Source: Thermococcus sp.
GTDB lineage: Archaea > Methanobacteriota_B > Thermococci > Thermococcales > Thermococcaceae
DNA: 64,000 nucleotides
Direction: 5' to 3'
NCBI RefSeq assembly: GCF_027023865.1
Contig: NZ_JALVUC010000003.1
Coordinates: 66,327 to 130,326 of the forward strand
Shown: positions 3,056 through 18,748 of the stretch, piece after piece
Numbering within the stretch: the first letter of the stretch is position 1
How the letters are laid out: each line of letters opens with the position of its first letter
The notes under the pieces: model-generated
Told to the model about the DNA's origin: nothing
Seen by the model: only the letters and a program-made list of their open reading frames with translations
The model's database searches: none
Program-made: the position numbers and the translations under genes

Positions 3056-3583
3056 CTAGAACTCCACCCCCTGCCTCGCCAGGGTCCCCCTCTGGTAGGG
3101 GTGCTTTATTTCTTTCATCTCCGTCACGTAGTCTGCGAGCTCAAAGAGCTCCTCCGGGCAGTAGCGGCCGGTGAGGACGAGCTCCGTGTTCTCAGCTTTG
3201 TTTTCAATGAGCCCCTTTACCTCCTCGACGCCCAGCATCTTGAAGCCGAGGGCGACGCATATTTCATCGAGGATCACCAGGTCCCACTCGCCGCTCGAAA
3301 CGACCTCCCTGGCGCGTTCTAAAGCCTTCCTGGCGGCCTCTATGTCGTCCGGTTCGGGCTTTCCGTGGACGAACTTCGGCAGGCCGAAGGACTCTATAAA
3401 AGCTCCGCACTCCCTTATCTTCTTCTGCTCGCCGTAGACGTCGGGGGCTTTCATGAACTGTATGATTATCACCCTCCCGCCGGAGCCGAGCATCCTGACG
3501 GCTAATCCAAAGGCGGCGGTCGTCTTTCCCTTCCCGTTGCCGGTGTAGACGTGCACAAGACCGAGTTTATCCTTCCATGACAT
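3056..3583 (-). CDS. cobO: Cob(I)yrinic acid a,c-diamide adenosyltransferase
   Basis: CobO/BtuR-type corrinoid adenosyltransferase, which attaches 5'-deoxyadenosine from ATP to reduced cob(I)alamin precursors in coenzyme B12 synthesis or salvage. An unusual P-loop, YTGNGKGKTTAA, lies near residues 13-24. Other family motifs are IIIQFMK, LVILDEI and TGRYCPEEL. The 175-residue length is usual for the family. ATG 3583 is chosen because GGTGG precedes it at the right spacing; the in-frame GTG at 3592 lies inside that ribosome site. No other cobalamin gene is nearby. It is the last core gene before the defence island. Confidence 0.92.
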   Translation of the reverse strand: MSWKDKLGLVHVYTGNGKGKTTAAFGLAVRMLGSGGRVIIIQFMKAPDVYGEQKKIRECGAFIESFGLPKFVHGKPEPDDIEAARKALERAREVVSSGEWDLVILDEICVALGFKMLGVEEVKGLIENKAENTELVLTGRYCPEELFELADYVTEMKEIKHPYQRGTLARQGVEF

Positions 3584-3654
3584 GGGTTCCACCGGATGGA
3601 TATAATCGCCGGGGTTTTTAGGGGTTTGTATATTCCAGACTTCAAGAAGCCAAA

Positions 3655-3663
3655 CTTTAAAAA
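3655..3663 (+). promoter_or_regulatory. TATA box of the first defence operon
   Basis: CTTTAAAAA lies 50 bases before ATG 3713. A transcript from about 3685 would exclude the upstream in-frame ATGs at 3596 and 3668, which supports the start chosen for the helicase. Confidence 0.5.
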
Positions 3664-3712
3664 CCGTATGAGTGGTAAAATAGTTAGATATTTTAACCGA
3701 TGGGGATGTCTA

Positions 3713-5881
3713 ATGGACAAGTTAAATGACAAAGTGCCACGAAGTTTCATAAAGTTACCTCTAAGACAGAGATATACCTCCCAAGATGATACACTAAATG
3801 AGTTTTTCATTCCCGTTATTGCTAACTCAAAATATTATTACCGTGCGAGTGGATATTTCTCCTCCTCAATTCTTGCCGCTGCCGCGAGAGGACTCGTTCA
3901 CTTCATAAAAAAGGGAGAGAAAATGTACCTAATAACAGGGGTCTTATTGTCACAAAAAGACGTTGAAGCCATTAATAACGGATTAGCAACTCCACCTGAA
4001 ATTATCGAGCAAAAGCTCCTAAAAGAACTTGAGGAAACAGATTTCGAAGATGTGATCATAAAAAGGCGACTAGAAGTCCTGGCATGGCTAGTCTCGCAGG
4101 GAAAATTGGAAATCAAACTAGCTATACCCTTTGAAAATGACAAAATAAAATCTTCTCCAACAGGAGAAGCAATCTGGCATAGCAAATTCGCAATTTTCGA
4201 AGATTTTTACGGCAATAAATTGCATATAGAGGGTTCAATAAACGAGACTGCAAAAGGATGGATTGACAACGCAGAATCATTCTCGGTTCATAGAAGTTGG
4301 ATAGAGGGCGAGAGAGGGTACATACTATCAGCAGAGGAGGAGTTTTGGGCAACATGGAATAATATCAATCCAAAGGTGCGTACTTACACAATCCCCGATG
4401 CAGTGAAACAAAAACTGGTGAGAATTGCCCCCAAAGATATCAAGGAGATCGTGGATCCAGAGGAAGTTCTGAGAAAAAGAAGCTCTTCGAAGAAACTTAT
4501 TAAACTCTGGCCTCACCAAGAAGAGGCCATCCAGGCGTGGTATAATAATGGAAGAAAAGGAATTCTATCCATGGCTACCGGAAGTGGAAAGACTCTAGCG
4601 GCATTGTTTGCCATCAAGAGATTACCCAAAGATGCGTTTGTGATATTACTAGTCCCCTCAAAAGAGCTTGTAACACAGTGGATAAAGGAAATCAAAAGAG
4701 TTTTCCCAGAATCACCGATAATAATTTGCTCAAGCCAAAATCCGGGCTGGAAAAGTACCCTAAAGGAGTTCATATTGGCATACCAACAGAAAAGAAATAA
4801 AAAATTCATAATATCAACAATTCGTTCTGCAAGCTCGGATACATTTATAGAGATTATCAATCAAAAACTTGGAGAAAAATACGTTCTTATAGCGGACGAA
4901 GTTCACAGGCTTGGGGCTAAAAAAAGTAGGAGAATCATGAAAGATCTCGAACCAGCATTAGGACGACTGGGATTAAGTGCTACGCCCACAAGAATCTGGG
5001 ATGATGTTGGAACTGACATGATCATGAAATATTTTGGGGGTATAATCTATGAATACTCATTAAGAGATGCCATCAGAGACGGGAGGATAGTCCCATACGA
5101 GTACTATATTGAAATCGTGCCGCTAACAGAAGAAGAGCTGTATGAATACAAAGATATCTCACGGGGGATCTACCGGAAGTATAAAAGTATTCTAACTAAG
5201 TACAAGCTACCAGAAAACACACCTCTCAAGGAAATCTTAGTCAGATTAGAGGATAAAACAGAAGTCAAAACGATTCAGAGCTTGCTATTAAAGCGAGCAA
5301 ACATTATCAAAAAAGCAGAGAATAAGATTCAAAAAACAATAGAGATCCTCGAGAAAGAGGGTGATAAACTAGGCCGGTGTCTCATCTACTGTCAAGACAC
5401 CGAGCAGTTAGAGCTTCTGGCAAAAGAGATGTCAAGAAGAGGATACAAGTTTCTAAAATACTTAGGAGTGCAGGAAAAAGAAAAGAAAGCCGAACACCTG
5501 CGCCTTTTTGAAGAAGGTATTGTCAAGTTTCTTTTGTCTATTAGATGTTTAGATGAAGGCGTCGATATTCCAGCCAGTGACTCAGCAATAATCCTGGCTA
5601 GCAGCAAGAATCCCCGGGAATTTATCCAACGGAGAGGAAGAGTGCTTAGAAAGGCCCCAAATAAAGAAAAAGCAATTATCTACGATCTTTTCGTTTTTCC
5701 ATATGATGAAACATACAATTATGACATCGAACCGACTGAGATTGAGATCTTTGAGAGAGAACTTAACAGGAGCTTGATATTTCTAGAAAGTGCCGTAAAT
5801 TCTGAGGGTACCTTAATTAAGCTTTTGAGATTATACCGCAAATTAGCATCGTTAAGTAGGGGGGATTTCAATGTCAGTTGA
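3713..5881 (+). CDS. PLD-domain superfamily 2 helicase (defence island)
   Basis: A fusion of a phospholipase-D-like nuclease domain with an SF2 DNA helicase, 722 residues. The N-terminal part carries one HKD-type half-site, HSKFAIF (about residue 155) followed by EGSINET. The helicase part has Walker A MATGSGKT (about 287), motif II ADEVH (about 395), motif III GLSATPTR (about 420), and motif VI FIQRRGRVLRK (about 640) after CLDEGVDIPAS. PLD-helicase proteins recur in prokaryotic defence clusters; here it probably remodels or cuts foreign DNA (inference). ATG 3713 fits the TATA position. It is the first gene of a four-gene operon, and its 3' end overlaps the next gene by 11 bases. The region is much richer in A+T and in AGA/AAA codons than cobO, consistent with horizontal origin. 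Confidence 0.85.
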   Translation: MDKLNDKVPRSFIKLPLRQRYTSQDDTLNEFFIPVIANSKYYYRASGYFSSSILAAAARGLVHFIKKGEKMYLITGVLLSQKDVEAINNGLATPPEIIEQKLLKELEETDFEDVIIKRRLEVLAWLVSQGKLEIKLAIPFENDKIKSSPTGEAIWHSKFAIFEDFYGNKLHIEGSINETAKGWIDNAESFSVHRSWIEGERGYILSAEEEFWATWNNINPKVRTYTIPDAVKQKLVRIAPKDIKEIVDPEEVLRKRSSSKKLIKLWPHQEEAIQAWYNNGRKGILSMATGSGKTLAALFAIKRLPKDAFVILLVPSKELVTQWIKEIKRVFPESPIIICSSQNPGWKSTLKEFILAYQQKRNKKFIISTIRSASSDTFIEIINQKLGEKYVLIADEVHRLGAKKSRRIMKDLEPALGRLGLSATPTRIWDDVGTDMIMKYFGGIIYEYSLRDAIRDGRIVPYEYYIEIVPLTEEELYEYKDISRGIYRKYKSILTKYKLPENTPLKEILVRLEDKTEVKTIQSLLLKRANIIKKAENKIQKTIEILEKEGDKLGRCLIYCQDTEQLELLAKEMSRRGYKFLKYLGVQEKEKKAEHLRLFEEGIVKFLLSIRCLDEGVDIPASDSAIILASSKNPREFIQRRGRVLRKAPNKEKAIIYDLFVFPYDETYNYDIEPTEIEIFERELNRSLIFLESAVNSEGTLIKLLRLYRKLASLSRGDFNVS

Positions 5882-6116
5882 TATTGAGGAATTTAAAGAA
5901 ATTGTTCGTATCTATGACTCTGAGTTAGAGCTTGTAATTCCAAAGGAAGACTACGAAATATTGAAACAGATCGCTGATAAGCGTTCTATCCCTGTTGAAG
6001 TGCTATTCGAGATCATAATACGAGAAGAAAAAGCTGTGAAAATCGGGAAAAAGAGAGGAGTCAGAAAAGATCTGATGAGAATTATAACCAACTACTTCAA
6101 TCGTAATATTGGTTGA
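5871..6116 (+). CDS. Small hypothetical protein, possible ribbon-helix-helix fold
   Basis: 81 residues, no family recognised. The middle reads LVIPKEDYEILKQIADK and then SIPVEVLFEIIIREE: one strand-like stretch followed by two helices, resembling ribbon-helix-helix proteins and the small DndE proteins of phosphorothioation clusters. The C-terminus is basic (KIGKKRGVRK), suggesting nucleic-acid contact. The similarity is structural guesswork. It overlaps the helicase gene by 11 bases and precedes the DndD-like gene by 12, so it is part of the same operon. A GGGGGG run shortly before ATG 5871 may serve as ribosome site. Confidence 0.6.
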   Translation: MSVDIEEFKEIVRIYDSELELVIPKEDYEILKQIADKRSIPVEVLFEIIIREEKAVKIGKKRGVRKDLMRIITNYFNRNIG

Positions 6117-6128
6117 GGGGGATAAGAT

Positions 6129-6977
6129 ATGCGGCTACAAAAGATCGTCATGAAGAATTTCAAACCGTATCGAGAACAGATCGAGATAACCTTGAACCGC
6201 GATTGCACCCAAGCAAACAAACACATATTCGTAATTTATGGGGGTAATGGATTCGGAAAAACTTCATTACTAGATGCAATTTACTGGGGGCTCTTTGGAC
6301 AGAAAGCACGTAAAACACAGTTACTGTTTAATGATAAAGAAGCGAAAAGGAAGAAGACTGAAATGTTTGTTGAACTGACCTTTTATGATGAAGTTCTGGA
6401 CAGAACATATGTTATATTTAGAAAGGCAACAAAAACAGCTACCTCTATTCATGAGACTCTAGAAGTAATAGTTAACGGAGAAGCCATCGTTGGTGACCCA
6501 CTTCTTAAGCAGGAGTATATTGAACAATATATAATGCCATATGAGATCAGCAGATTTTTCTTTTTTGATGCAGAAGACGTGAAAACCCTTGCTAGAGAGC
6601 AAGGTGGCGACACCGTTAAGGATTCTGTTGAATTGCTCCTAGGACTGAAGGCTATTAGGGAATCAATTGAAGATATGGATAATGTACGACAAGATCTAGA
6701 AAAACAAAGAAAAAAGTATCTAAAAGAGGAGGGCAAGCTTCAAGAAATTGGACGGAAACTAAACGAGGTATCTGAAAAACTGGAACTATACAAGAAGAGA
6801 TATGAGAATGTTAAAGCAGAGTTAAAGAGTAAAAAGGAGAAACTATCACAACTAAGGAAAGACCTCGCTGAATTCGGGTACGAGGAAATCAAAAAGCTAG
6901 CAGAAAAAAGAGATGCCCTAGAACTAAAACTAAAGAGTCTAACAGAAAAAAAAAGAGGAGATCATGAGAGAAATTGA
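6129..6977 (+). CDS. DndD-like SMC/Rad50-type ATPase, N-terminal part (frameshifted)
   Basis: First part of an SMC-like ATPase interrupted by a frameshift. It begins LQKIVMKNFKPYREQ, then Walker A GGNGFGKTS (about residues 38-46). The Q-loop region RFFFFDAEDVKTLA (about 140-153) resembles the FFDGE motif of DndD, the ATPase of DNA phosphorothioation. A coiled coil starts about residue 175. The frame ends within the coiled coil, just after a run of nine A at 6946-6954. With eight A the coil would read straight into the next frame (EKKEEIMREIEELS). Whether the pieces are made separately, joined by slippage, or result from a sequence error cannot be told here. Walker B lies in the second part. 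Confidence 0.75.
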   Translation: MRLQKIVMKNFKPYREQIEITLNRDCTQANKHIFVIYGGNGFGKTSLLDAIYWGLFGQKARKTQLLFNDKEAKRKKTEMFVELTFYDEVLDRTYVIFRKATKTATSIHETLEVIVNGEAIVGDPLLKQEYIEQYIMPYEISRFFFFDAEDVKTLAREQGGDTVKDSVELLLGLKAIRESIEDMDNVRQDLEKQRKKYLKEEGKLQEIGRKLNEVSEKLELYKKRYENVKAELKSKKEKLSQLRKDLAEFGYEEIKKLAEKRDALELKLKSLTEKKRGDHERN

Positions 6978-8160
6978 AGAACTCAGTGCTAACATTCATC
7001 TTTTAATTCTCAAATCCGAGCTAACTGAAGCTGCTCAGGAAATTGAAAAGGAATTAAGAAAACTGCAAAAAAAGCGGGCCGGATTAAGAGAGTTAAATCT
7101 CAAAATGCAGCTCTTGGAAGAACTTTTAGAAGAGTCGAAGTGCCCAGTATGTGGAAAAATGATATCGGAACTGGACACTCCTTCAATAGAGGTCGAACTG
7201 GGGAGACTAAGGAGTGAGTACCCTCAAATATCCGAGAAATTGAAGAATATTGAGGATAAGTACTATAAATATCACAACCTGCACTCTCAGATTTTACAAA
7301 AGCTGAAAGAGATTGAGCGCCTTTCCACTGGAAATATTTATGAACTCCGTATAAAATTGCACGAAAAAGAAGAGGAAATCACTAATCTGCAAAAGCAGAT
7401 AAGGAGAATAAGTGAAACCCTGAAAAATGCTGGTATCTCTCTTGTATCCCAAACAGAAAACAAGATTTCAGAGCTGCAGTATGAGATAGGCAAGCTTGAA
7501 GGGGAGGCCGGCAGACTCTCAGGCGATATCGAAAAATTAGAAAATGAAAAGAAAAGGCTAGAAAAGAAGTTGAAACTATACATGTCCAAGGGCTCTGAAT
7601 TATCTGAAGTCGAAGCTAAAATTGAGTTTGTGGATAACATCAAAGCTGCATTAGAAGAATATTTAGAGTATATGATCGAAAAGAGAAGGAAGGAAATTAT
7701 AGAAACGTCTTCAGAAATATTCCTCAAGCTGACAAACAAAAAAGAGGAATATGTTGGATTTGAATTTAGCAGTCAAAATGACTACAAGTTTCAAATTGTG
7801 TGCAAAGATGGGTCTAGACCTGACATGGACACAATTTCCTATGGGGAGATGGAAGTCGTCGCGTTAAGTTTTATACTCGGCCTTAATAAGTATTCCCAGA
7901 TCAAAGCCCCAATTATTACTGATACATTGTTTGGACGACTAAGTCCATATGTCCAGGAGAACATTGCTGAACTTTTCTCAGAAATGGATAACCAGATAAT
8001 TCTCCTTGTCCTAAAAGATGAGAGACCCGGAGGCAAAACCGAAATTGATTCAATAGCCCCAATATTCAAGCACAAGATCTGTAAGGAATTCATTATTCAG
8101 AGAAATCAGATTAATAGAGAGTCCTCGATTTTTGAAGGTAAGGTTCTGGTGGGTGATTAA
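6964..8160 (+). CDS. DndD-like SMC/Rad50-type ATPase, C-terminal part
   Basis: Remainder of the SMC-like ATPase in the +1 frame, overlapping the first part by 14 bases. It carries a Rad50-style zinc hook, CPVCGKM (7141-7161), in the middle of a long heptad-rich coiled coil. Then come the ABC-type signature SYGEMEVVALS and Walker B IITDTLFGRLS, close to the IDTPLGRLD motif of DndD proteins. Joined, the two parts would be about 677 residues, the usual DndD size. ATG 6964 has GAGGAG four bases upstream, so re-initiation is possible, but a split in the coiled coil has no obvious function. The stop is one base before the next gene. Confidence 0.75.
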   Translation: MREIEELSANIHLLILKSELTEAAQEIEKELRKLQKKRAGLRELNLKMQLLEELLEESKCPVCGKMISELDTPSIEVELGRLRSEYPQISEKLKNIEDKYYKYHNLHSQILQKLKEIERLSTGNIYELRIKLHEKEEEITNLQKQIRRISETLKNAGISLVSQTENKISELQYEIGKLEGEAGRLSGDIEKLENEKKRLEKKLKLYMSKGSELSEVEAKIEFVDNIKAALEEYLEYMIEKRRKEIIETSSEIFLKLTNKKEEYVGFEFSSQNDYKFQIVCKDGSRPDMDTISYGEMEVVALSFILGLNKYSQIKAPIITDTLFGRLSPYVQENIAELFSEMDNQIILLVLKDERPGGKTEIDSIAPIFKHKICKEFIIQRNQINRESSIFEGKVLVGD

Positions 8161-8161
8161 A

Positions 8162-8521
8162 ATGCCCTGGGCAGGGAGCAAACCAAAAATTTACACTGGA
8201 TCAAAAGACAAATATGAAGAGCTTGTTAAGGATTACAAGGAATATTTTCCCACATATAGCGTTCTATTCCAGATAGCAGCTGCTGTTGGAATAGTACTTG
8301 ATCAAAAGAAAGAGCTAACAAAGAGAGAAGAATTAGTTAATACATATTCAATCGACAAAGATGGAACCCTAGAGCTGCTGATGAGAATTAAGTACCCAGA
8401 TCTAAGTCCCGAAGAAAGGCTTGAAGAATTAGAGAAATATGCCGAAGCAGGAATTGAGGTAATATACGAAGAGACAGTATCCAGTGGTCATTTTGACTTC
8501 AGAAAATATGCAGAGCTCTAA
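8162..8521 (+). CDS. Small protein resembling Dnd system-associated protein 4
   Basis: 119 residues. The core, about residues 11-45 (KYEELVKDYKEYFPTY, then FQIAAAVGIVLDQKK), resembles the short Dnd-associated protein 4 family found beside phosphorothioation genes. This is pattern memory and needs a profile search. ATG 8162 is used rather than upstream GTG/ATG codons because GGTGGGTG precedes it and the DndD-like stop is one base away. Last gene of the first operon; its stop overlaps the stop of the convergent gene by four bases. Function unknown. Confidence 0.6.
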   Translation: MPWAGSKPKIYTGSKDKYEELVKDYKEYFPTYSVLFQIAAAVGIVLDQKKELTKREELVNTYSIDKDGTLELLMRIKYPDLSPEERLEELEKYAEAGIEVIYEETVSSGHFDFRKYAEL

Positions 8522-8898
8522 AGAAGAACGCACTTCAATGCATTCAACGCTTTTCTTTCATATTTCAAATATAGCCGGTACCACCAGTAGACCTCATCCG
8601 AAGGAAGCTCTGCAATACCATTGGCAATCTTCCTGACTTTTTCTCGGTTTATAACGGTCTTAACTGTTTGAGCAGCTAAGATAACCCTCAGGGCGTCTTC
8701 TTCACTTATTTTCAAGAAGATGATCCCGTTTTTATATTGCTTCATTTCCTTTGCGGGTATCTTACTTAGGAGGGTTTCTTTAAGGATTGTGACCTTCCAC
8801 CCCTTTAACTTAGTGTAATATGACCTCTCTCCACTATCAGACTTGCGATATACCCTCAGTGAAGGTTTTGGTGAAAGACTCAGTTTAAAGTTTGTCAT
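8518..8898 (-). CDS. Hypothetical protein of the PglZ operon
   Basis: 126 residues, rich in Lys, no recognised family. It has a strand-rich N-terminal half (LSLSPKPSLRVYRKS), a central ISEEDALRVILAAQTVKTVI helix region and an aromatic stretch YWWYRLYLKYER near the C-terminus. It overlaps the PglZ gene by 14 bases, and GGAGGGAG precedes the ATG, so it is the last gene of the second island operon. Small accessory proteins in this position are common in BREX-like clusters, but no homology to BrxA, BrxB or BrxF is visible. Confidence 0.6.
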   Translation of the reverse strand: MTNFKLSLSPKPSLRVYRKSDSGERSYYTKLKGWKVTILKETLLSKIPAKEMKQYKNGIIFLKISEEDALRVILAAQTVKTVINREKVRKIANGIAELPSDEVYWWYRLYLKYERKALNALKCVLL

Positions 8899-9799
8899 GG
8901 GACTCCCTCCTCACAATTACAACCGGAATCAATGACTCCATGAGACTTATCCCCCCATGAGTTATAAATGAGTCCCTACTTTTGACAGCATGGAATCTAC
9001 CAATAGCGACCTTGTAATTTCCAACAGTCTCGTAAGGGGGGATTATGAGGTTTTCCCCAAATCTTGGGCTTTTTGTGTGCTTCCACAGATACAGATTGGG
9101 ATTATCCCCCAGAAACAAGTATCCATGATCCCCTGTTATTACTAAGTCAGCATGCCTAGAGAGGCTCTGTATTATTGTGATTAATTTTCCTATGACCTCG
9201 TTGATATCCTGCAGAGTAGTATGATGGATCTGAGCGTTATGGAGGGGTGCATCAGGATAATATGAATAGAATGCAAATCCCGTTTCATGACCTATTCTTG
9301 GAGGATTCGCTGGGTTCTCAATAAGGCGCGTTTTCCACGGTTTTCCTGCCATAATAAGCTCTTTGTTATTGAAGTGCTCCTTCATGATAGGAGTGCCAAA
9401 AGCCATCATGGCCGCTTTGGACGTTATTGTAGGAGGTGCCGCATATGAAAACTCATACACAATCCTCTCTTTCCCCAACTCGTTTATTAAAAGAATGAGC
9501 TCCCTTATGCTAAATCCGTCTGCAATTAGAACGTTAGCATTAGCTTCAGCAGCCTTTTGGAAAGCCTTGTTAATACTTACCTCTTCTTTGTGCTGTGGCA
9601 TCAATAACTGGTAAAACTCCCTGCCCCAAGTCTCGTATAGCCACTGCTCAAATAGGGATACCTTCTCCTCGAATTCTGAATAATAAGATAAATCTGGAGA
9701 AGAGAGAACTTTAGAGAAATTTTCCACTACGAATCTTCCGATTTCCCTTGTCGGATTTTCCATTGTGATGATCCTTTCCAGAAGTGCTTCTGTGATCAT
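8885..9799 (-). CDS. pglZ: PglZ-domain protein (alkaline phosphatase-like), short form
   Basis: PglZ belongs to the alkaline-phosphatase superfamily and is the hallmark of BREX and Pgl phage-defence systems. The metal-binding motifs are visible: VLIADGFSIREL (about residues 90-101), a central VITGDHGYLF (about 216-225), and near the C-terminus THGGISLMESLIPVVIV. At 304 residues it is much shorter than the usual 700-900, so it is close to the catalytic domain alone. ATG 9799 has GGAGGTGAAAAC just upstream and overlaps the stop of the DUF499 gene in an ATGA arrangement, so it is translationally coupled. The enzymatic role of PglZ in defence is still not firmly known. Confidence 0.82.
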   Translation of the reverse strand: MITEALLERIITMENPTREIGRFVVENFSKVLSSPDLSYYSEFEEKVSLFEQWLYETWGREFYQLLMPQHKEEVSINKAFQKAAEANANVLIADGFSIRELILLINELGKERIVYEFSYAAPPTITSKAAMMAFGTPIMKEHFNNKELIMAGKPWKTRLIENPANPPRIGHETGFAFYSYYPDAPLHNAQIHHTTLQDINEVIGKLITIIQSLSRHADLVITGDHGYLFLGDNPNLYLWKHTKSPRFGENLIIPPYETVGNYKVAIGRFHAVKSRDSFITHGGISLMESLIPVVIVRRESHDKL

Positions 9800-12700
9800 G
9801 TTTTCACCTCCATTTCAACGGTCATCTCCGAGGAGGCAGGAAGAATCTCTAAGACATCTACATCGATTACTTCTGCCATTGTCTCAGGCGTCTCTAATTC
9901 CCTCTCTATCCTCAAAGTGACATCCTTGAAGAAAAAGCCTGCCTGTGTGAGTAATTGTCTCAGGTTAGTTATCTTGCTCAGATCTCCCTCAGCTTCAATG
10001 AGTAACTTTTCAAAGCCTAGGTAATCCATCCGAGATTGTAATGACACCGTACATTTTCCTTCCTTTACCAAGGATGTTAAGATTGTTATGTTCTCGATGA
10101 AATCTTTTAGCGGAAGCTTCATGCTCATTTTAATGTACTTAACTTCCTTTTCCAAGTTTGAGCGAATAGTGCCTATGACTTTCTCAAGGGTTCCCGACTC
10201 TCTGAGTAGTATCCACCGTTCTCTTCCAAGTCCGGATCCCCCAGGTGACCTGCCCACTTTTTTGAACAGTGCAACTAATTCAAGATTGCTACGTGGACGT
10301 ATAGTGATTTCTTCGTCGCCACCTCCCCCCTGCCACGAGATGAACCTATATTCCTCAGTTGAGTGTACCCTGATTCTAAGTGAACTTCCCTCGGAAATCG
10401 AGACTGCTAATTGTCCGAATCCACTTTCCTCTCCGATTTCCTCGGATTCTACTATTATCGGAGCATTGATCGGATTTCCATCAATGTCCCGCGTTTTCAC
10501 AACTATCTTTATTTTAGGTTTCTGTTCACGTTTCTTCACCAGGGCTTCCAAATGGATGTCTTTTTCTAGTGTAATCTCTTTGACAAGATCTTTAGTTCCG
10601 TCACTCCATCCTAAGAACTCATAGTCCGCAGGGAGGTCTATTTTGACGACATGTTTGGAGCCGGGGAGGTCTTCAAGAGGCTCCCCTAAGCGAATTCTCT
10701 CTCCGTCAACGTACACTGCAATATCGCTTACCATTTTTCCCTCTTTGCCCTTTACAGTTATTGTTAATTTTACCATTTTCACATCCTTCGTGAGAACACC
10801 CCTGTCCGAAAGCCTGAAAACGGAAGTCTTTGTGTGTGCCCGTCCACTTTCATCGATGTACGCAAGTAGCCCAGCCTTCACGGCCTCAGTTATTGCATTC
10901 TCAATTTTCTCAGGTCTGGAAATGTATTCAAAGCTCGGAACTTTGTAGAAATATTCCTTCAACTCCCGCACTTCTAGTTTTTTCTTGTTTTGAGGCCAGT
11001 ATCTTTCCACAAGTGCCGCAGGAGATACGTTATTTATGACCTTTCCAAGGTTCAGAAGCTTCTCTTCGACTTTCAGGAGTATGTTTTGGTGCAGTAACCC
11101 AGTAGTTTCGAGTTCTTCTGCTTTCAATTCTTCATAGGGATAGACAAGGTATCTGTAGCTCAATATCGCCAGCTGGCTCAAGTGTGTGATGTTTCTGTGC
11201 TTCTCCAGTTCAAGGGACTTTTCTATGGTCTTCGTCTTCAAATCGGGGTTTTTTTCCTTTTCCTCTTCGATGAGTTCGATCGCCTTAAGTCTATATGCGA
11301 CGTCTTTTGCCCTCTCAGTTGTTTCGGCATCGGGAACTAAAAACACCACTGTGTTTTTGTATTCTCTGGGTCTGGAGCCGTAGTACTCAAAGAACTCTCT
11401 TACCTGAGATACTGCCTCCGCTTTACTGCTGGCACTCCTGTCCCAACTCACGAAGGCAAGTTTTAGAGCATAGTCCGGAGAATCAGGTATCATATCAGAA
11501 GAAGACGCCCACATTATGATCTTGCTCTTCTGGAATATCCTTTCTCTGGACTGCCTATTGTACTCCTTATACCTACTGTCCAGCCATTTGTCCAACGTCT
11601 CTTTTATCACATCTTTCCAGATCTCAGGGTTCTTGTTTTTGATGGTCTCAGTGTAATCGCTGATGATCTTGTTGATGTTCGGTTTTCCGTAGAGGAACCT
11701 TCCTGTGTGGGGGTCTACTGAAACAAACCATGTACGTTTGAGGACTTCGTTAATGGCCGAGTCCAATAGATTTTTGCTAATAGTGGGGGATGTAAGGGCA
11801 AAGTATATCGCGTTTCTACCAGTTCCACTCTCACCAGGAACTGTTTCAACCAAAGAATTTAGCACTATGAATCCGAGAACTTTCTTGGCAAGGTCTCTGA
11901 TTTCCGTATCATTAATGGAATCAAGTCGGTTCCAATCCCCTTTTAGCCTAGTGGCAAGGGGAAGATCTCCAATCTTCGCTATAGTCCCTGCCAATACATA
12001 ATCGTCAGTAATATCAATATGGGCAGGGGTTATCAGATAGGCATCCTTGGGGTTGTTTTTATACACCGAGTAAACCAAACTCGCCAGGAACCTCAACTCG
12101 TCCCTGACCAGCTGGAACTCCTTGCTGCCTTTGAGCCTTTCGAGGAGCATATCAACGGCAGGATGGAATGGGTAACTTTTGACTATGATCTCAGCTATGT
12201 CAGTAGAGAGCATCATTTTGTTCCTTATGTATGCGTCTTTGTAAGCTTGGGCGACTTCCTTTGCAGTTTCCAGGAAATGATTGCCTTTAAAGAGGGCGAT
12301 CCTCCGGATCTGCTTCGACTCGTCTGGAGAAGTCACTATCTTAATTGAGCTGTACCTTTCGAGGATGTTCTTTATCTTCCTAAACGCCTTTTCAAATTCT
12401 CCCTCTGGAGTGGCAATAAGTAACGCCGTTGTGTACGTTTCTTCAACTGCAGTCGTCAGGTTTTGGAGGAAAGCCTTAACTTTCTCCTGCTTTTCCTCGT
12501 CGAGTCTCTCAATGTACAGGGTCAGCTCATCTATAAGGATGAGCGTTGGAGCCTCGTTGAAAGCCTCTTTTAGTACCGTTGTGGATGGAACATAATCCCA
12601 AGAATCATATCTCTCATCGTATTTATCAAGCTGCTTCAGTATCATACCCCATATCGTTTTTACCTTAGTGCCATCGGGGAATGGATAGCCAAATATTTCG

Positions 12701-13113
12701 AGCTTTGTTCCGTCTACGACGACAGTTCTAACCTTGGGCGGCAATCCAACGTTCAATCCAAATTTCGAGGCAAAAATTGGCCCAATTTCATTCCAGTTTT
12801 CCGTTAAGTGATAGAGCAGGAGCAATGTGTGAGTTTTACCCCCACCGAGCCCAACCCTTAGGTGATAAACGGGCCTTCCGTCGGCCCCGTTTAGGCGACG
12901 GAATATCTCTGTCACAACTTCTCTCATTTTAGAGGTAAGATACGTCCTCTCAATGAACATTCTCGGGTTGTAGTACCTCTCCTCAACGTTTACATCCTTC
13001 CCGAGCTTCCTTTTCTCCCAAACGCTTCCAAGGTTCCCAACAAAACTGTTCTCGGTGAGCTTTCCCTGGAGGACTTCATCATGAGGAACGAGAACTTCCC
13101 ATACCCGCTTCAT
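9796..13113 (-). CDS. DUF499 (BrxC/PglY-like) ATPase with surface-repeat-like modules
   Basis: Large P-loop ATPase of the DUF499 family, related to BrxC/PglY of BREX systems, 1105 residues. Walker A is VGLGGGKTHT (about 87-96) and Walker B LILIDELTLYI (about 188-198). The first ~500 residues are the ATPase and its helical extension, followed by a winged-helix-like stretch. Unusually, residues about 775-950 hold two beta-rich repeats of the InlB-B/PEGA kind (YEFLGWSDG...LEALVKK and YRFISWQGG...LVALFKK), normally seen on cell surfaces. A final 155-residue domain of unknown kind follows. ATG 13113 is preferred to GTG 13122, because GGTGG overlaps the latter and serves as ribosome site. The reading frame is intact. 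Confidence 0.85.
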   Translation of the reverse strand: MKRVWEVLVPHDEVLQGKLTENSFVGNLGSVWEKRKLGKDVNVEERYYNPRMFIERTYLTSKMREVVTEIFRRLNGADGRPVYHLRVGLGGGKTHTLLLLYHLTENWNEIGPIFASKFGLNVGLPPKVRTVVVDGTKLEIFGYPFPDGTKVKTIWGMILKQLDKYDERYDSWDYVPSTTVLKEAFNEAPTLILIDELTLYIERLDEEKQEKVKAFLQNLTTAVEETYTTALLIATPEGEFEKAFRKIKNILERYSSIKIVTSPDESKQIRRIALFKGNHFLETAKEVAQAYKDAYIRNKMMLSTDIAEIIVKSYPFHPAVDMLLERLKGSKEFQLVRDELRFLASLVYSVYKNNPKDAYLITPAHIDITDDYVLAGTIAKIGDLPLATRLKGDWNRLDSINDTEIRDLAKKVLGFIVLNSLVETVPGESGTGRNAIYFALTSPTISKNLLDSAINEVLKRTWFVSVDPHTGRFLYGKPNINKIISDYTETIKNKNPEIWKDVIKETLDKWLDSRYKEYNRQSRERIFQKSKIIMWASSSDMIPDSPDYALKLAFVSWDRSASSKAEAVSQVREFFEYYGSRPREYKNTVVFLVPDAETTERAKDVAYRLKAIELIEEEKEKNPDLKTKTIEKSLELEKHRNITHLSQLAILSYRYLVYPYEELKAEELETTGLLHQNILLKVEEKLLNLGKVINNVSPAALVERYWPQNKKKLEVRELKEYFYKVPSFEYISRPEKIENAITEAVKAGLLAYIDESGRAHTKTSVFRLSDRGVLTKDVKMVKLTITVKGKEGKMVSDIAVYVDGERIRLGEPLEDLPGSKHVVKIDLPADYEFLGWSDGTKDLVKEITLEKDIHLEALVKKREQKPKIKIVVKTRDIDGNPINAPIIVESEEIGEESGFGQLAVSISEGSSLRIRVHSTEEYRFISWQGGGGDEEITIRPRSNLELVALFKKVGRSPGGSGLGRERWILLRESGTLEKVIGTIRSNLEKEVKYIKMSMKLPLKDFIENITILTSLVKEGKCTVSLQSRMDYLGFEKLLIEAEGDLSKITNLRQLLTQAGFFFKDVTLRIERELETPETMAEVIDVDVLEILPASSEMTVEMEVKT

Positions 13114-13161
13114 AATAACCACCTATTTCAGCAATACTCTTATAACTCTCCACGATGCAAA

Positions 13162-13169
13162 CTTATAAG
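13162..13169. promoter_or_regulatory. Shared palindromic TATA element between divergent defence operons
   Basis: CTTATAAG is its own reverse complement and sits midway between the DUF499 start (13113, minus) and the methyltransferase start (13204, plus). A start site 20-25 bases away in either direction leaves room for both ribosome sites (GGTGG and GGTG). It may serve both operons. A second plus-strand candidate, TTATAAAATA at 13175-13184, is too close to ATG 13204 unless the transcript is leaderless. Confidence 0.45.
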
Positions 13170-13203
13170 GGTTGTTATAAAATATCTCAGGACGGTGAAG
13201 AAT

Positions 13204-14112
13204 ATGAGGCGTTTAATTGAGAAATGGTTCCCTGTTGTAGAGGCAAGTAGTGAAGCCAGAAGGGAGAGAGCTGGAGCTAACATGTTACCACCCTTATTCT
13301 TCTTACAATTATATTGGACAAGAAAACCATTGACCCCCTCAAGAATAGCCTCTTATCTTGCTGTCCTTCCTGAAATCGAAGTAAATGATGAGATTAGAAA
13401 ACAAATCTTGTATCACCTGGGCATAAAGGGAGATCCCCTGAAGGTCGTTGGAAAAAAATTCGATTATCCAATGGCTGAGAGACAAAACCCCACCCCATTA
13501 TCAAAATTTAACATTAAAGCAGGGGACATCGAGATCAAACCAATCAAAATCCCCACTGGAGCAGACTTCATGGCCGGAGGAGGCTCCATACCTTTTGAAA
13601 TGACTAGAAGTGATTATAAAAAAGTAATTGCCGGTGAGTACAACCCCATCGCATTTACGATTCTAAAAGCATCCTTAGAGTATCCAGTTAAATACGGTGA
13701 TAAATTAGTCGTCGATGTTGAAAAATACGGTAAAAAGCTCATTAGGAAACTGAAAGAAGAGGTTAAAGAGTACTACCCTGAGCACCCCATTGGAGGACAG
13801 CCAGAAGATTACGTATGGGTCAGGGTCGTTAAATGTCCTCACTGTGGAAGAGAGACCCCCGTTTTGATGAGCAAATGGCTCGATAAAGAAAGGGGGTTTG
13901 CACTATACCCTGAAGATAAAGCAGATAACATCAAACTTCACGTCGTTAAAGTTAGGAAAATTAGCTCCCGTAAAAAAGGGAACACAACAATTGATCTAGT
14001 TGAGGTAACAGATGGATCGTTTAAAGGAACCCGATTCGAAACTGAAGGGAATCAAGCAAGGGGGCGGTTAAATGTCTCGGCTGCGGGTATGTCATCAAGT
14101 CCGAAGAAGTGA
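13204..14112 (+). CDS. DUF1156 DNA methyltransferase, N-terminal part (frameshifted)
   Basis: First part of a large DUF1156 adenine-specific-type DNA methyltransferase (PglXI in type 3 BREX). The family opening RRLIEKWFPVVEAS is followed by LYWTRKPLTPSRIASY. The SAM-binding motif is TGADFMAGGGSIPFE (about residues 118-132), and a zinc-type CPHCGRETP follows near residue 217. The frame is lost at the G run 14060-14064. One extra G would continue as ARGAVKCLGCGYVIK, which restores a second zinc knuckle and joins the next frame. ATG 13204 fits GGTG upstream; earlier starts (13081) lie across the promoter. The catalytic DPPY motif is in the second part, so neither part alone should be an active enzyme. 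Confidence 0.78.
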   Translation: MRRLIEKWFPVVEASSEARRERAGANMLPPLFFLQLYWTRKPLTPSRIASYLAVLPEIEVNDEIRKQILYHLGIKGDPLKVVGKKFDYPMAERQNPTPLSKFNIKAGDIEIKPIKIPTGADFMAGGGSIPFEMTRSDYKKVIAGEYNPIAFTILKASLEYPVKYGDKLVVDVEKYGKKLIRKLKEEVKEYYPEHPIGGQPEDYVWVRVVKCPHCGRETPVLMSKWLDKERGFALYPEDKADNIKLHVVKVRKISSRKKGNTTIDLVEVTDGSFKGTRFETEGNQARGRLNVSAAGMSSSPKK

Positions 14113-16058
14113 AGGAACAATACAAAGAGTTCATAGGGGAAAAAGAAGCTCAAGGCTATAAGGGGATGCACCTTCATAGAATGGTAGCCGTTGTTATGGG
14201 AAGTGGTAAAAATAGAAAATACTACGAGCCCACACAGGAGATGATAGAAGCTTATAAAAAAGCTGAGGAAGATTTGAGGGATCAATGGGATGAATTAGTT
14301 GCCAAGGAACTAGTCCCAATTCAACAGATTCCCCTTGGAGAGAAAACAAAAGAGCCAATGCTTAAAGGGATTACTCATTTCTACCAACTCTTTAATGCAA
14401 GGCAGCTTTTAGTTCATGCGAAGCTTGTTGAACTGATTAGAGAAACATACAACGAGGTCCTTAAGGAAGAACTCGACAAAGGAAAAGACAGGAAAGAGGC
14501 CACTGAATATGCAAAGGCCATAAGTACATACCTGACATTGTTTTTAGGAAAAGTTATTGGATACAATTCTGCATTTACTAGATGGAATAAACCAAAGGGC
14601 ACGATTGCTCATACGTTCGACTTACATGCATATAGATGGATATGGGATTACGGAGAATTTGATATGATACCAAAAAAAGGTGGGGCAGACTGGGCTCTTG
14701 TAAACATGCTAAAAGCACTTAAAGGCATTGTTAAACGCATTAAAGACTCGAATTCCCAAGTTGAGATAATCTACGGAGACGCTGAAAAAACCACCCAAAG
14801 ATACAGGGATTTAGACATCATCTTCATTGATCCTCCATATTATGGAGCAGTCCAGCATGGAGAACTCTCCGACTACTTCTACGTATGGTTCAGGCTGATC
14901 CTTAAGGATATCTATCCAGAGGCCTATCAGTTCCTTGAGGTTCCAAAGAGTGAGGAGGCAGTTTACAACGAAGTTAGATGGAAGAGATTAGCAGAAAAGA
15001 GATACGAAGAGAAGTTAAAAAGAATCTTCAAAAACATGAGATATTCTCTGGCAGACGATGGACTGCTATTGATCTGGTTCGCCCACAAAGCTGGAGAGGC
15101 TTGGATTAAGACTGTCAAGGCACTATTGGATGCGGGTTACTCGATCTCCGCCATGTGGAGTGTCAGGAGCGAATATGAGCATGGGCTACACATAGCAGGA
15201 AAAGCCGCCCTAAGAACCTCAATTCTCTTCGTATGCAGAAAGAGGCAAGGAGAAGGGGCATGGCTTCCCGATGTCATGAGAGACTTCGACGAAAAGATTC
15301 TCAAGAGAATTGAGGAGTTGGAAGGCTACGGCTTATTCGGGCCAGATTTAGTCATGGGGACACAGGCGGAAGCGTTAAGAATAGTCAGCGGAGGGTGGCC
15401 AGTAAAAGATCCAAGCGGCGAGAGAACACCTGAGCAAATACTGGATGAAGCACTAAACAGGGCAGTTGGTATAGTCATCAACCACACCCTCAGGAAAGTC
15501 GCACCACACATCACTAACGTTGATGCCCCCACGAAGTTCTACGCACTGGCATACAGCCTGGGCTACGGAGATATAATCGACTACGACGATGCGAGAAGAA
15601 TAGCATTGGCCTTGGGTACGACGGAAGGGGATCCGGTGGAGGAGATCGTGATCAAACACAACATTGGAAAGTTCCAGAAAGTTGACGTAGATGGAAAGAA
15701 AACCAAAGCCGTCAAGCTCTACAATGCCTTTGAAAGGGATGAAAAGTCATTAGAAGAGGATCTGATGATCAACGTCCTCCACAGGGCAGTAAGGGCCCTT
15801 GAGGATGGTGAAAGTATAGACAAAGTGGCGGCCATTTTGGCAAAAGGCGGCCATTACATCTGCGAGGTCGCAAAGGCACTGTACGAGGTCATTCCGGAGG
15901 AAACAAAGAACAAGAACCTCCAGAGGGAGAAACTCAGGCTTAAGGACATCCTTGTGGGAATATGCAACGTTGGCCTACACGAGATCGCGATTGAAAAGAT
16001 AGAGGAAGCCAAGGAGCAGAAGAGGTTAGACGAATTCATAAAGGTGAGGAAGGAATGA
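14109..16058 (+). CDS. DUF1156 DNA methyltransferase, C-terminal part
   Basis: Second part of the methyltransferase, 649 residues as an open frame from a GTG that is probably just an internal valine codon. The same frame can be read back to about 14061 and supplies GAVKCLGCGYVIK, missing from the first part. The catalytic motif is IFIDPPYYGAVQHGELSDYF (residues about 238-257), and LADDGLLLIWFAHKAGEAW follows. Joined length would be about 950 residues, usual for the family. GTG overlaps the upstream TGA in a GTGA arrangement, so coupled re-initiation cannot be excluded, but it would lose the zinc knuckle. The stop overlaps the next gene by four bases. Confidence 0.78.
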   Translation: MKEQYKEFIGEKEAQGYKGMHLHRMVAVVMGSGKNRKYYEPTQEMIEAYKKAEEDLRDQWDELVAKELVPIQQIPLGEKTKEPMLKGITHFYQLFNARQLLVHAKLVELIRETYNEVLKEELDKGKDRKEATEYAKAISTYLTLFLGKVIGYNSAFTRWNKPKGTIAHTFDLHAYRWIWDYGEFDMIPKKGGADWALVNMLKALKGIVKRIKDSNSQVEIIYGDAEKTTQRYRDLDIIFIDPPYYGAVQHGELSDYFYVWFRLILKDIYPEAYQFLEVPKSEEAVYNEVRWKRLAEKRYEEKLKRIFKNMRYSLADDGLLLIWFAHKAGEAWIKTVKALLDAGYSISAMWSVRSEYEHGLHIAGKAALRTSILFVCRKRQGEGAWLPDVMRDFDEKILKRIEELEGYGLFGPDLVMGTQAEALRIVSGGWPVKDPSGERTPEQILDEALNRAVGIVINHTLRKVAPHITNVDAPTKFYALAYSLGYGDIIDYDDARRIALALGTTEGDPVEEIVIKHNIGKFQKVDVDGKKTKAVKLYNAFERDEKSLEEDLMINVLHRAVRALEDGESIDKVAAILAKGGHYICEVAKALYEVIPEETKNKNLQREKLRLKDILVGICNVGLHEIAIEKIEEAKEQKRLDEFIKVRKE

Positions 16059-16462
16059 CAAGCGCTTCGAAGCTCTACTTTCTACCTTCCAAACATCTTT
16101 CAAAGTTCAAGACATTCATGAAGAACCTAGGCTACGAAGTTGAGTTAATGAAGCCGTTGGAGTTCATAAGAAAGGCACAGCAGGGGAAAGTGAACTCCTC
16201 CGGGCTGAAATGCATCATAATCGAGGATGTCTGCAAGTTCCTTAACGATGAGTTTGTGGATTTAAACCTGGCTCTCTCAACGCTCAAAACAGCCCTAACA
16301 AAGGTCAACTGCATGAAGGTTCTCGAAGTGCCAAGAATAACCGAGCTCGGTACCCATGTAGAGTTCTGTGGGATCGTGATGGAGATAAGTGCGGTTGAGA
16401 TTTACGAAATGCAGCAATACAAGGAAGACGAGGGAATAGAGCTGACTATTGTTAAGCTTTAG
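16055..16462 (+). CDS. Hypothetical protein of the methyltransferase operon
   Basis: 135 residues, no family recognised. It is a soluble alpha/beta-looking protein with LYFLPSKHLSKFKTFMKN at the start, a helical middle (DLNLALSTLKTALTKVN) and a strand-rich end. It overlaps the methyltransferase stop by four bases (ATGA), so it is co-translated. In other DUF499-DUF1156 clusters this position can hold a DUF3780 protein; this one is shorter and I see no clear match. It may be a partner subunit of the methyltransferase (inference from coupling). Confidence 0.6.
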   Translation: MTSASKLYFLPSKHLSKFKTFMKNLGYEVELMKPLEFIRKAQQGKVNSSGLKCIIIEDVCKFLNDEFVDLNLALSTLKTALTKVNCMKVLEVPRITELGTHVEFCGIVMEISAVEIYEMQQYKEDEGIELTIVKL

Positions 16463-16524: not shown

Positions 16525-17067
16525 ATGAGAGATGAGGAGTATCTTGAGTTGATACTAGCTGCCCTTCGCAGAATGGAGAGAAAGTATTACACCCTACGAG
16601 ACAAAACTGGCAAAGTCAAATATCAAGAACGGCCAATAGCCTATGAATTCTATCATCAACTACGGCAGATCTTGGAAGAAATGACTAGAGAAAAAGAAAT
16701 TGTGCTCCACGGGGAATTTGATAAGAGGTTCCAGCACTACTATCCAGACTGTGCTAGAAAAATGCCAGATTTTCTCATTCATGTCCCAGGAAAGCCAAGA
16801 AACTATGCCGTGATCGAACTTAAGCTGGCGTCAAGATCATTTAAAGACATTTTGAAGGATATAGAGAAGTTGAAGTGTTTCAGGGAGAAGCTAGGATACA
16901 TAACCCCTGTACTGATACTATTTGGGAACAAAAAGAACTTGGAAAGTAGACTTAATAAAATTCGCGAGATATCGGAAAGCAAAAGCATCTACATTTTGGG
17001 CTACAATCTGAACGATGGTTCTATTGTCCAATTAACTTCCAAACCAGAACAACTGCGAGAAACCTGA
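16525..17067 (+). CDS. PD-(D/E)XK nuclease-like protein
   Basis: 180 residues. The central stretch MPDFLIHVPG...AVIELKLA fits a PD-(D/E)XK nuclease core: Pro-Asp, then Glu-X-Lys about fourteen residues later, preceded by a helical region containing EFYHQLRQILEEMT. Proteins of this fold cut or nick DNA in restriction and defence systems; substrate and activity here are inferred only. The gene is preceded by a strong GGAGGGGG site and lies 62 bases after the previous gene, so it is probably the third gene of the operon, though a separate promoter is possible. It marks the right end of the AT-rich island proper. Confidence 0.65.
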   Translation: MRDEEYLELILAALRRMERKYYTLRDKTGKVKYQERPIAYEFYHQLRQILEEMTREKEIVLHGEFDKRFQHYYPDCARKMPDFLIHVPGKPRNYAVIELKLASRSFKDILKDIEKLKCFREKLGYITPVLILFGNKKNLESRLNKIREISESKSIYILGYNLNDGSIVQLTSKPEQLRET

Positions 17068-18261: not shown

Positions 18262-18316
18262 CACCAACTAAAAGGTTTATTTGCACAAGGACAGAGATTA
18301 AGAGTAGGTGATCCTC

Positions 18317-18748
18317 ATGACCTACTGGCTCTGTATAACCAACCGCGACAACTGGGAGGTTGTCAAAAAGAAGAACGTCTGGGGAGTCGCGAAGAGGCAC
18401 AAAAACACCATTGCCAAGGTTAAGCCCGGCGACAGGCTCATCTTTTACGTCAAGCAGGAGCGTAAGGACAAGGAAATTCTTGAACCAAAGATTGTCGGCA
18501 TCTTTGAAGTCGTGAGCGAGCCTTACACGGACTCGGGCAAGATTTTCAAGAGTCCCCCACACCTGAATGAGACTTACCCGTTGAGGATAAAGATCAAGCC
18601 CATAAAGCTCGGTGAGCTCGAGTTCAAGCCGCTCATTCCAAAGCTGAAGTTCATCACGAACAAGAAGAAGTGGAGCGGCCACCTGATGGGCAAAGCCATG
18701 AGAGAACTGCCAGAAAAGGATTACAAGCTGGTTGAAGGCCTGCTTTGA
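18317..18748 (+). CDS. EVE-domain protein (UPF0310-like)
   Basis: 143 residues, a complete EVE domain: [20 protein letters not shown] at the start, [12 protein letters not shown] in the middle, and [15 protein letters not shown] at the end. EVE belongs to the PUA-like fold and binds modified bases in DNA or RNA; in bacteria it is enriched in defence neighbourhoods. Codon use is more GC-rich than the island to its left. It is a single-copy gene in many Thermococcales, so it may simply flank the island. ATG 18317 follows GGTGATCCTC, a good ribosome site. Confidence 0.82.

What the first reader, a model, noticed from the sequence alone, without database searches (positions are those of the whole stretch)
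6129..8521. DndD-like ATPase and Dnd-associated-like protein without any sulfur-transfer genes
The FFFFDAEDV and DTLFGRLS motifs and size point to DndD, and the 119-residue neighbour resembles Dnd-associated protein 4. Yet no cysteine desulfurase (DndA) or PAPS-reductase-like DndC lies anywhere in the 64 kb. A DndD-type motor working with base methylation instead of phosphorothioation would be a new use.
Basis: partly seen in the sequence, partly recalled or inferred. Interest (0 to 1): 0.6.

Follow-up and report, generated by a model that had tools for sequence, protein, structure and literature searches.

The report
PbeABCD joined to BREX-related methylation genes
The DndD-like gene is not a stray sulfur-modification motor but PbeC of a PbeABCD antiviral cassette, here joined in three archaeal genera to a DUF499/adenine-methyltransferase/PglZ module; methylation-paired Pbe cassettes were already known, this particular partner was not, and the copy in this genome carries two frameshifts.

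Summary
The ATPase, its small neighbour and the missing sulfur genes are real; the reading needs correcting. 6129-8160 is PbeC (CxC-type sister of DndD), split in this assembly by a one-base shift at an A9 run. 8162-8521 is PbeD, a DndE homologue (fold search: the 17 best PDB hits are all DndE). Upstream lie PbeA (HKD nuclease-helicase) and PbeB. The genome (98.7% complete) has no DndC or DndA over cut-off. Facing this PbeABCD cassette are a DUF7680 protein, a PglZ-like protein, a DUF499 ATPase and a DUF1156 adenine methyltransferase (also frameshifted): a BREX-related core without its own helicase. Two other Thermococcales genera keep the same order with intact genes and different flanks. Methylase-paired Pbe cassettes are already published; of 39 Pbe loci sampled, 18 have a methylase and no DndC, none has DUF499. 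So: a new variant of a known kind. Two further results: PbeB resembles the C-terminal segment of DndC that docks on DndD; and PbeBCD together with the methyltransferase's recognition insert are the recombination-variable parts of copies otherwise about 94% identical, which suggests, without proving, that they read the same site.

The parts
3596..5881 (+). pbeA: N-terminal HKD/PLD-type nuclease motif (HSKFAIFED..GSIN) fused to an SF2 helicase; true start may be the ATG near 3713
   Evidence: PADLOC PbeA E 3.8e-210; TIGR04095 dnd_restrict_1 E 1e-108, below its 600-bit cut-off, and NF042964 PLD anti-phage protein E 1.3e-19
5871..6116 (+). pbeB: 81-aa small protein resembling the DndC C-terminal segment that docks on the DndD head
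   Evidence: PADLOC PbeB E 4e-4 and DndC (profile 401-457 of 481) E 4e-4; profile-profile match to DndC tail, P 4.7e-5 to 6.4e-5, 52-57 gapless columns
6129..6977 (+). pbeC, N-terminal ORF: ABC-ATPase half with Walker A (GGNGFGKT, 6240-6263) and FFFFDAEDV; ends early after the frameshift
   Evidence: PADLOC DndD/PbeC E 8e-39/5.5e-38; intact orthologues 679/678 aa
6946..6954 (+). A9 run where the pbeC frame shifts by one base; no such run in the two relatives
   Evidence: DNA alignment, sequence
6964..8160 (+). pbeC, C-terminal ORF: coiled coil, CPVCG zinc hook (7141-7155), ABC signature, DTLFGRLS
   Evidence: PADLOC PbeC E 4e-37; 77% identical to G089
8153..8521 (+). pbeD: DndE homologue with two ribbon-helix-helix units (GTG 8153 or ATG 8162 start)
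   Evidence: AlphaFold2 pLDDT 90.4; Foldseek: top 17 PDB hits all DndE, prob 1.00 for the first 12; TIGR04062 E 7e-4
8518..8898 (-). DUF7680 protein (126 aa); DUF499 neighbour in BREX-related systems of haloarchaea
   Evidence: PF24728 E 1.9e-11; the protein next to DUF499 in Haloferax is DUF7680, E 3.8e-38
8885..9799 (-). PglZ-like protein (304 aa, standalone)
   Evidence: weak matches to the C-terminus of PglZ models, E 7e-5 to 8e-4
9796..13122 (-). DUF499 AAA+ ATPase (1108 aa, HmaC/BrxC-like)
   Evidence: PF04465 E 1.5e-38; PADLOC HmaC E 7.8e-64
13081..14112 (+). DUF1156/COG1743-type N6-adenine MTase, N-terminal ORF (motif I FMAGGGS, start of the recognition insert)
   Evidence: DUF1156_MTase/HmaB matches; 951-aa single ORF in relatives
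14060..14064 (+). G run (position approximate) with a one-base deletion that splits the MTase ahead of the second CxxC of its zinc finger
   Evidence: DNA alignment
14109..16058 (+). MTase, C-terminal ORF (DPPYYG motif IV, C-terminal region)
   Evidence: PADLOC HmaB E 2.5e-55
16055..16462 (+). 135-aa protein of the unit, 87-88% identical in both relatives, no family
16525..17067 (+). 180-aa protein of the unit; the 226-aa gene that precedes it in both relatives is absent here
18308..18748 (+). EVE-domain protein (predicted modified-base reader) at the edge of the unit in all three genomes
   Evidence: PF01878 E 5.8e-24; present in L032 and L035

Best explanation
It is one composite restriction-modification-like defence unit: a BREX-related modification core (DUF499 ATPase, DUF1156 N6-adenine MTase, DUF7680, PglZ-like protein) whose usual Swi2/Snf2 helicase is absent and whose restriction arm is a PbeABCD cassette. 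Most likely mechanism: the MTase, aided by DUF499, methylates adenines in a target site of host DNA (inferred from family). PbeC and PbeD, the counterparts of DndD and DndE, scan DNA and recognise the unmethylated site (inferred by homology). PbeB clips onto the PbeC head where DndC docks on DndD, so that no sulfurtransferase is present (similarity shown, docking inferred). Recognition licenses PbeA, an HKD nuclease fused to an SF2 helicase, to attack or stall the foreign DNA, with PglZ and DUF499 as co-effectors or licensing parts (inferred). In this genome's assembly pbeC and the MTase each carry a one-base frameshift and one accessory gene is missing, so this copy is either recently inactivated or mis-assembled; relatives hold the intact version.
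For: Gene identities. Same gene order and orientation in three genera (window, G089, G093) with different outer neighbours. No DndC/DndA over cut-off in the genomes. The only strong BR-type helicase hit in the own genome lies on another contig with its own DUF499 and MTase. PbeD = DndE fold. PbeB = DndC docking segment: profile-profile score 36.8 against at most 15.4 for 40 column-shuffled controls, and E. coli L458/E462/R471, whose mutation breaks DndC-DndD binding (PMC12193691), fall on I/E/K of window PbeB. Purifying selection on nearly every part, including both sides of both frameshifts (PbeC and MTase parts: pN 0.07-0.13, pS 0.68-0.79 against G089). G089 and G093 are 91-96% identical over DUF7680-PglZ-DUF499 but 57-80% over PbeB-C-D and 73-85% over the MTase N-terminal and recognition-insert part; site patterns put the window with G089 in PbeBCD (24/62/66/25 against 11/16/32/5) but outside both in the backbone.
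Against: The Pbe genes and the DUF499-MTase genes lie in separate, convergent or divergent transcripts, so they might be two neighbouring systems. All three occurrences are in one order (Thermococcales). The MTase insert is a patchwork: part sides with G093, part with G089, so co-switching with PbeBCD is not clean. The PglZ assignment rests on weak C-terminal matches. No activity, methylation or binding was measured.
Confidence: 0.6

Rival explanations
1. Two separate defence systems that travel side by side in a defence island: a solitary PbeABCD and a helicase-less DUF499/MTase/PglZ system, with no shared target.
For: PbeABCD occurs elsewhere without DUF499 (0 of 80 PbeC/DndD-type loci), and DUF499 systems occur elsewhere without Pbe (21 of the 24 DUF499-bearing Thermococcales genomes). 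Separate transcripts.
Against: Same order, tight packing (pbeD and DUF7680 genes overlap by 4 bases at 8518-8521) and different flanks in three genera; the DUF499 side lacks the helicase present in the ordinary Thermococcales and haloarchaeal DUF499 loci examined; both DNA-recognition parts are the recombination-variable parts.
Confidence: 0.3
2. The window copy is a decaying, non-functional locus; the split ATPase and MTase are pseudogenes and nothing is at work in this organism. (This concerns the copy, and is compatible with the best explanation for the type.)
For: Two one-base frameshifts and loss of the 226-aa gene found in both relatives.
Against: All parts downstream of the frameshifts still show strong purifying selection, so any decay is very recent; one-base changes in homopolymers of a 26-contig draft are also the classic assembly error. 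The locus as a type is intact in two other genera.
Confidence: 0.4
3. A phosphorothioate system whose DndC/DndA act from elsewhere in the genome.
For: One 633-aa PAPS-reductase-domain protein exists (C19), with 25% identity to DndC over 165 residues.
Against: That protein scores 28 bits against a 290-bit DndC cut-off, similar hits occur in both relatives, and the same model rings in genomes such as M. jannaschii; it lies on another contig and carries a ferredoxin-like tail. No DndA over cut-off.
Confidence: 0.03
4. Programmed transcriptional slippage at the A9 run makes full-length PbeC plus a truncated head-only form on purpose.
For: A9 is a slippery run exactly at the frame change.
Against: Neither relative has the run and both are in frame; the MTase frameshift has a different sequence context.
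Confidence: 0.05

Closest known systems
PbeABCD / CxC-ABC ATPase-DndE systems (Xiong et al. 2019, PMC6459918; Rakesh et al. 2024, PMC10853773)
   Same: All four genes in the same order: HKD nuclease-helicase, small protein, CxC ATPase, DndE homologue; often paired with methylases instead of dndC
   Different: Here the modification side is a DUF499/DUF1156-MTase/DUF7680/PglZ core, which the 2024 paper does not mention (no 'DUF499' or 'PglZ' in its main text)
DUF499-centred BREX-related (BR) systems, also called Hma (Rakesh and Krishnan 2026, PMC12839542)
   Same: DUF499 ATPase plus DUF1156 N6-MTase with an insert-type recognition domain and 4C zinc finger; standalone PglZ as in Type-3; EVE neighbour as noted for DUF499 loci in PMC7641849
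   Different: No Swi2/Snf2 helicase in the unit and no recognised iSTAND; PbeABCD takes the helicase-nuclease place. That paper's main text does not mention CxC, Pbe, DndD or DndE
DndABCDE phosphorothioation system
   Same: PbeC, PbeD and PbeB correspond to DndD, DndE and the DndC C-terminal docking segment
   Different: No sulfurtransferase catalytic domain, no cysteine desulfurase of the DndA type, no DndB in the unit
Rad50
   Same: ABC ATPase heads, coiled coil and CxxC zinc hook
   Different: Shorter protein (679 aa against about 880); profile scores far lower than DndD/PbeC

Membership tests
PbeABCD (CxC-DndE) cassette | HKD nuclease fused to SF2 helicase (PbeA) | tested here: met
   PADLOC PbeA E 3.8e-210; HxK..D..GSxN visible in the sequence
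PbeABCD (CxC-DndE) cassette | small protein PbeB between pbeA and pbeC | tested here: met
   81 aa, PADLOC PbeB E 4e-4; same position in relatives and other Pbe loci
PbeABCD (CxC-DndE) cassette | CxC/CxxC zinc-hook ABC ATPase on the Pbe side of the DndD/CxC split | tested here: met
   CPVCG conserved; tree places the three Thermococcales sequences with PbeA-linked ATPases, apart from DndC-linked DndD. The window gene itself is frameshifted.
PbeABCD (CxC-DndE) cassette | PbeD is a DndE homologue | tested here: met
PbeABCD (CxC-DndE) cassette | protects against viruses | not testable with these tools
   needs a plaque assay
Dnd phosphorothioation | DndC sulfurtransferase | tested here: not met
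   best genome hit 28 bits against a cut-off of 290
Dnd phosphorothioation | DndA desulfurase | tested here: not met
   best own-genome hit 136 bits against a cut-off of 480; the model rings in all 14 controls
BREX-related Type-3 (DUF499) system | DUF499 ATPase and DUF1156 N6-MTase | tested here: met
   the window MTase is frameshifted, intact in relatives
BREX-related Type-3 (DUF499) system | standalone PglZ | tested here: inconclusive
   304-aa protein with weak C-terminal PglZ matches only
BREX-related Type-3 (DUF499) system | BrxHII-like Swi2/Snf2 helicase in the locus | tested here: not met
   the BR helicase probe finds only PbeA, weakly (E 1e-4), in the window; the genome's BR helicase is on C15 with another DUF499
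BREX-related Type-3 (DUF499) system | iSTAND protein | tested here: inconclusive
   no informative Pfam or NCBIfam family for the other small proteins of the unit; no fold search done

The most novel reading that the evidence does not exclude
Probability: 0.45. Interest if true: 0.7.

Novelty: new variant of a known kind. Interest (0 to 1): 0.5.

Why it matters
If the unit works as one machine it links two families described separately (Pbe/Dnd and BREX-related DUF499 systems) and gives a direct way to ask what DndD/DndE-type proteins do when no phosphorothioate is made: do they read adenine methylation? The PbeB-DndC match suggests a concrete function (docking on the ATPase head) for a small protein so far described as mostly disordered and of unknown role, and it can be tested with three point mutations. 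For this genome, the practical message is that an automated 'DndD' annotation would wrongly suggest phosphorothioation.

Tried and rejected
Phosphorothioation in trans: rejected. Rad50/RecN identity: rejected, DndD/PbeC profiles score far higher, although the only sequence-level PDB relatives are Rad50 heads. Programmed frameshifting: unlikely, the run is not conserved. PbeD by sequence against the PDB: nothing useful; the fold search worked. PglZ by sequence against the PDB: nothing. PbeB fold: low-confidence helical model (pLDDT 62), not used. DUF499 in viral contigs: none. DUF499 near Pbe outside Thermococcales: none in 80 loci; DUF499 hits in 9 of 49 genomes lie on other contigs or outside the locus (one about 15 kb from a DndD, L116). 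A clean co-swap of PbeBCD with the whole MTase insert: not found, the insert is a patchwork. A test of assembly error by comparing the rest of the window with complete genomes of the genus was only started.

Full report
What is there. PbeA (3596-5881) is an HKD nuclease fused to an SF2 helicase (PADLOC PbeA E 3.8e-210; TIGR04095). PbeB (5871-6116) is an 81-aa protein. PbeC (6129-8160) carries Walker A, the FFFFDAEDV motif, a CPVCG zinc hook and DTLFGRLS; its intact orthologue matches DndD (202 bits) far better than Rad50 (84 bits) but stays below the DndD equivalog cut-off, and a tree places it with PbeA-linked ATPases rather than with DndC-linked DndD. PbeD (8153-8521) folds, at pLDDT 90, into a structure whose 17 best PDB matches are all DndE.

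The ATPase is split. In the window the ATPase is two overlapping ORFs in different frames. The change falls at a run of nine A (6946-6954). Two other Thermococcales genomes of different genera, G089 and G093, have the gene intact at 679 and 678 aa and lack the A run. A second one-base change near 14060 splits the methyltransferase, which is a single 951-aa ORF in both relatives. A 226-aa gene of both relatives is missing between 16462 and 16525. Against G089, synonymous sites are near saturation in PbeC and the MTase (pS 0.68-0.79) while non-synonymous differences are low (pN 0.07-0.13) before and after both breaks. The breaks are therefore either very recent or assembly errors in a 26-contig draft; I cannot tell which.

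No sulfur chemistry. In the 98.7% complete own genome and in both relatives, no DndC reaches its cut-off: the best own-genome hit is a 633-aa PAPS-reductase/ferredoxin protein with 28 bits against 290. No DndA reaches its cut-off; the model also rings in all 14 control genomes, so the hits are generic.

The partner. Facing PbeABCD are a DUF7680 protein, a PglZ-like protein and a DUF499 ATPase on the minus strand, then a DUF1156-type N6-adenine MTase and small proteins on the plus strand, and at the edge an EVE-domain protein. DUF499 plus DUF1156 MTase is the core of the BREX-related (BR, Hma) systems of PMC12839542. DUF7680 sits next to DUF499 in a haloarchaeal BR system, together with a DUF1156 MTase and a PLD-helicase. 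Ordinary BR loci in Thermococcales have their own Swi2/Snf2 helicase; the window unit has none, and the helicase found in the own genome belongs to a second DUF499 locus on contig C15. The same PbeABCD-plus-core order, with different outer neighbours, occurs in G089 and G093 and in no other of the 94 Thermococcales genomes searched.

How unusual. Pbe cassettes with methylases instead of phosphorothioation genes are known: 155 of 320 solitary pbeAC pairs lie near MTase genes (PMC6459918), and cytosine methylases in CxC-DndE systems are described in PMC10853773. In a sample of 39 PbeA-linked loci from genome contigs, 18 carry a methylase without DndC, 8 carry DndC, 13 carry neither within the DNA held, and none carries DUF499, the DUF1156 MTase, PglZ or DUF7680. 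The BR paper's main text does not mention CxC, Pbe, DndD or DndE. The combination is therefore a new variant as far as these sources show; papers outside the held library and supplementary tables were not searched.

PbeB and DndC. A PADLOC DndC model matched PbeB weakly at its C-terminal end. Profile-profile comparison of PbeB sequences with a diverse DndC alignment gives a gapless match of 52-57 columns at the DndC C-terminal segment (P 4.7e-5 to 6.4e-5; score 36.8, against at most 15.4 in 40 column-shuffled and 10.7 in reversed controls). A DndC-tail model finds the PbeB of L094 at 23.5 bits against 10.6 for the best of 3800 shuffles; the window PbeB itself scores only 9.3. That segment (E. 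coli residues 433-482) is the part predicted to dock on the DndD head, and L458D/E462A/R471A breaks DndC-DndD binding (PMC12193691). In the gapless alignment these positions are I, E and K in window PbeB. So PbeB is probably a free-standing version of the DndC docking segment. I found no mention of this in the papers read; it is an inference from weak but controlled similarity.

Mosaic evolution. G089 and G093 are 91-96% identical in DNA over DUF7680-PglZ-DUF499 and mostly 83-97% over the MTase C-terminal part and the next two genes, but 57-80% over PbeB-C-D and 73-85% over the MTase N-terminal part and recognition insert. Counting sites where two of three copies agree, the backbone supports G089 with G093 (DUF499 145 against 21 and 10; PglZ 72 against 8 and 6), while PbeBCD supports the window with G089 (PbeB 24, PbeC 62 and 66, PbeD 25, against 11, 16, 32 and 5 for G089 with G093). 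The MTase is mixed (42, 53, 58), with one segment siding with G089 and others with G093. PbeBCD was thus exchanged by recombination, and the MTase insert too, though not cleanly in step. This fits a shared target specificity but rests on three genomes.

Mechanism. Shown: gene content, conservation, absence of sulfur genes, DndE fold (predicted model), purifying selection, mosaic pattern. Inferred: the MTase marks self, PbeC-PbeD scan for unmarked sites with PbeB on the ATPase head, and PbeA executes, with DUF499 and PglZ assisting. The main rival is two adjacent independent systems. The window copy itself may be dead.

Noticed in passing
5871-6116; L094, L125, L163: PbeB resembles the DndC C-terminal segment that docks on DndD, including the positions whose mutation breaks docking.
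   Followed up: yes
L160 (G000:C15) 3135-15090: The same genome carries a second, ordinary DUF499 system (Swi2/Snf2 helicase with NOV_C domain, DUF1156 MTase, DUF499) on another contig.
   Followed up: partly
L032 5462-8119 against L034 3506-6155: PbeB-C-D differ strongly between two genomes whose DUF499-PglZ genes are about 94% identical: a recombination-exchanged cassette.
   Followed up: yes
49502-51272: IS607-type pair: serine recombinase with a MerR-like HTH followed by a TnpB-like (Cas12f1-like TNB) protein.
   Followed up: no
17215-18261 and 19953-20549: A 348-aa protein shared with G093 next to the EVE gene, DUF3800-like by eye only (no Pfam match), and a true DUF3800 protein close by.
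   Followed up: no
43357-45288: Prolyl-oligopeptidase-like gene whose ORF appears to run past the stop used in several complete genomes of the genus; possibly another indel.
   Followed up: no
L001 823-2724: Thermococcales PAPS-reductase-domain protein with a ferredoxin-like C-terminus that weakly rings DndC models; similar hits in both relatives.
   Followed up: partly
L032 17295-17756: G089 has a DUF365 (EVE-like) protein where the window and G093 have the 348-aa protein.
   Followed up: no
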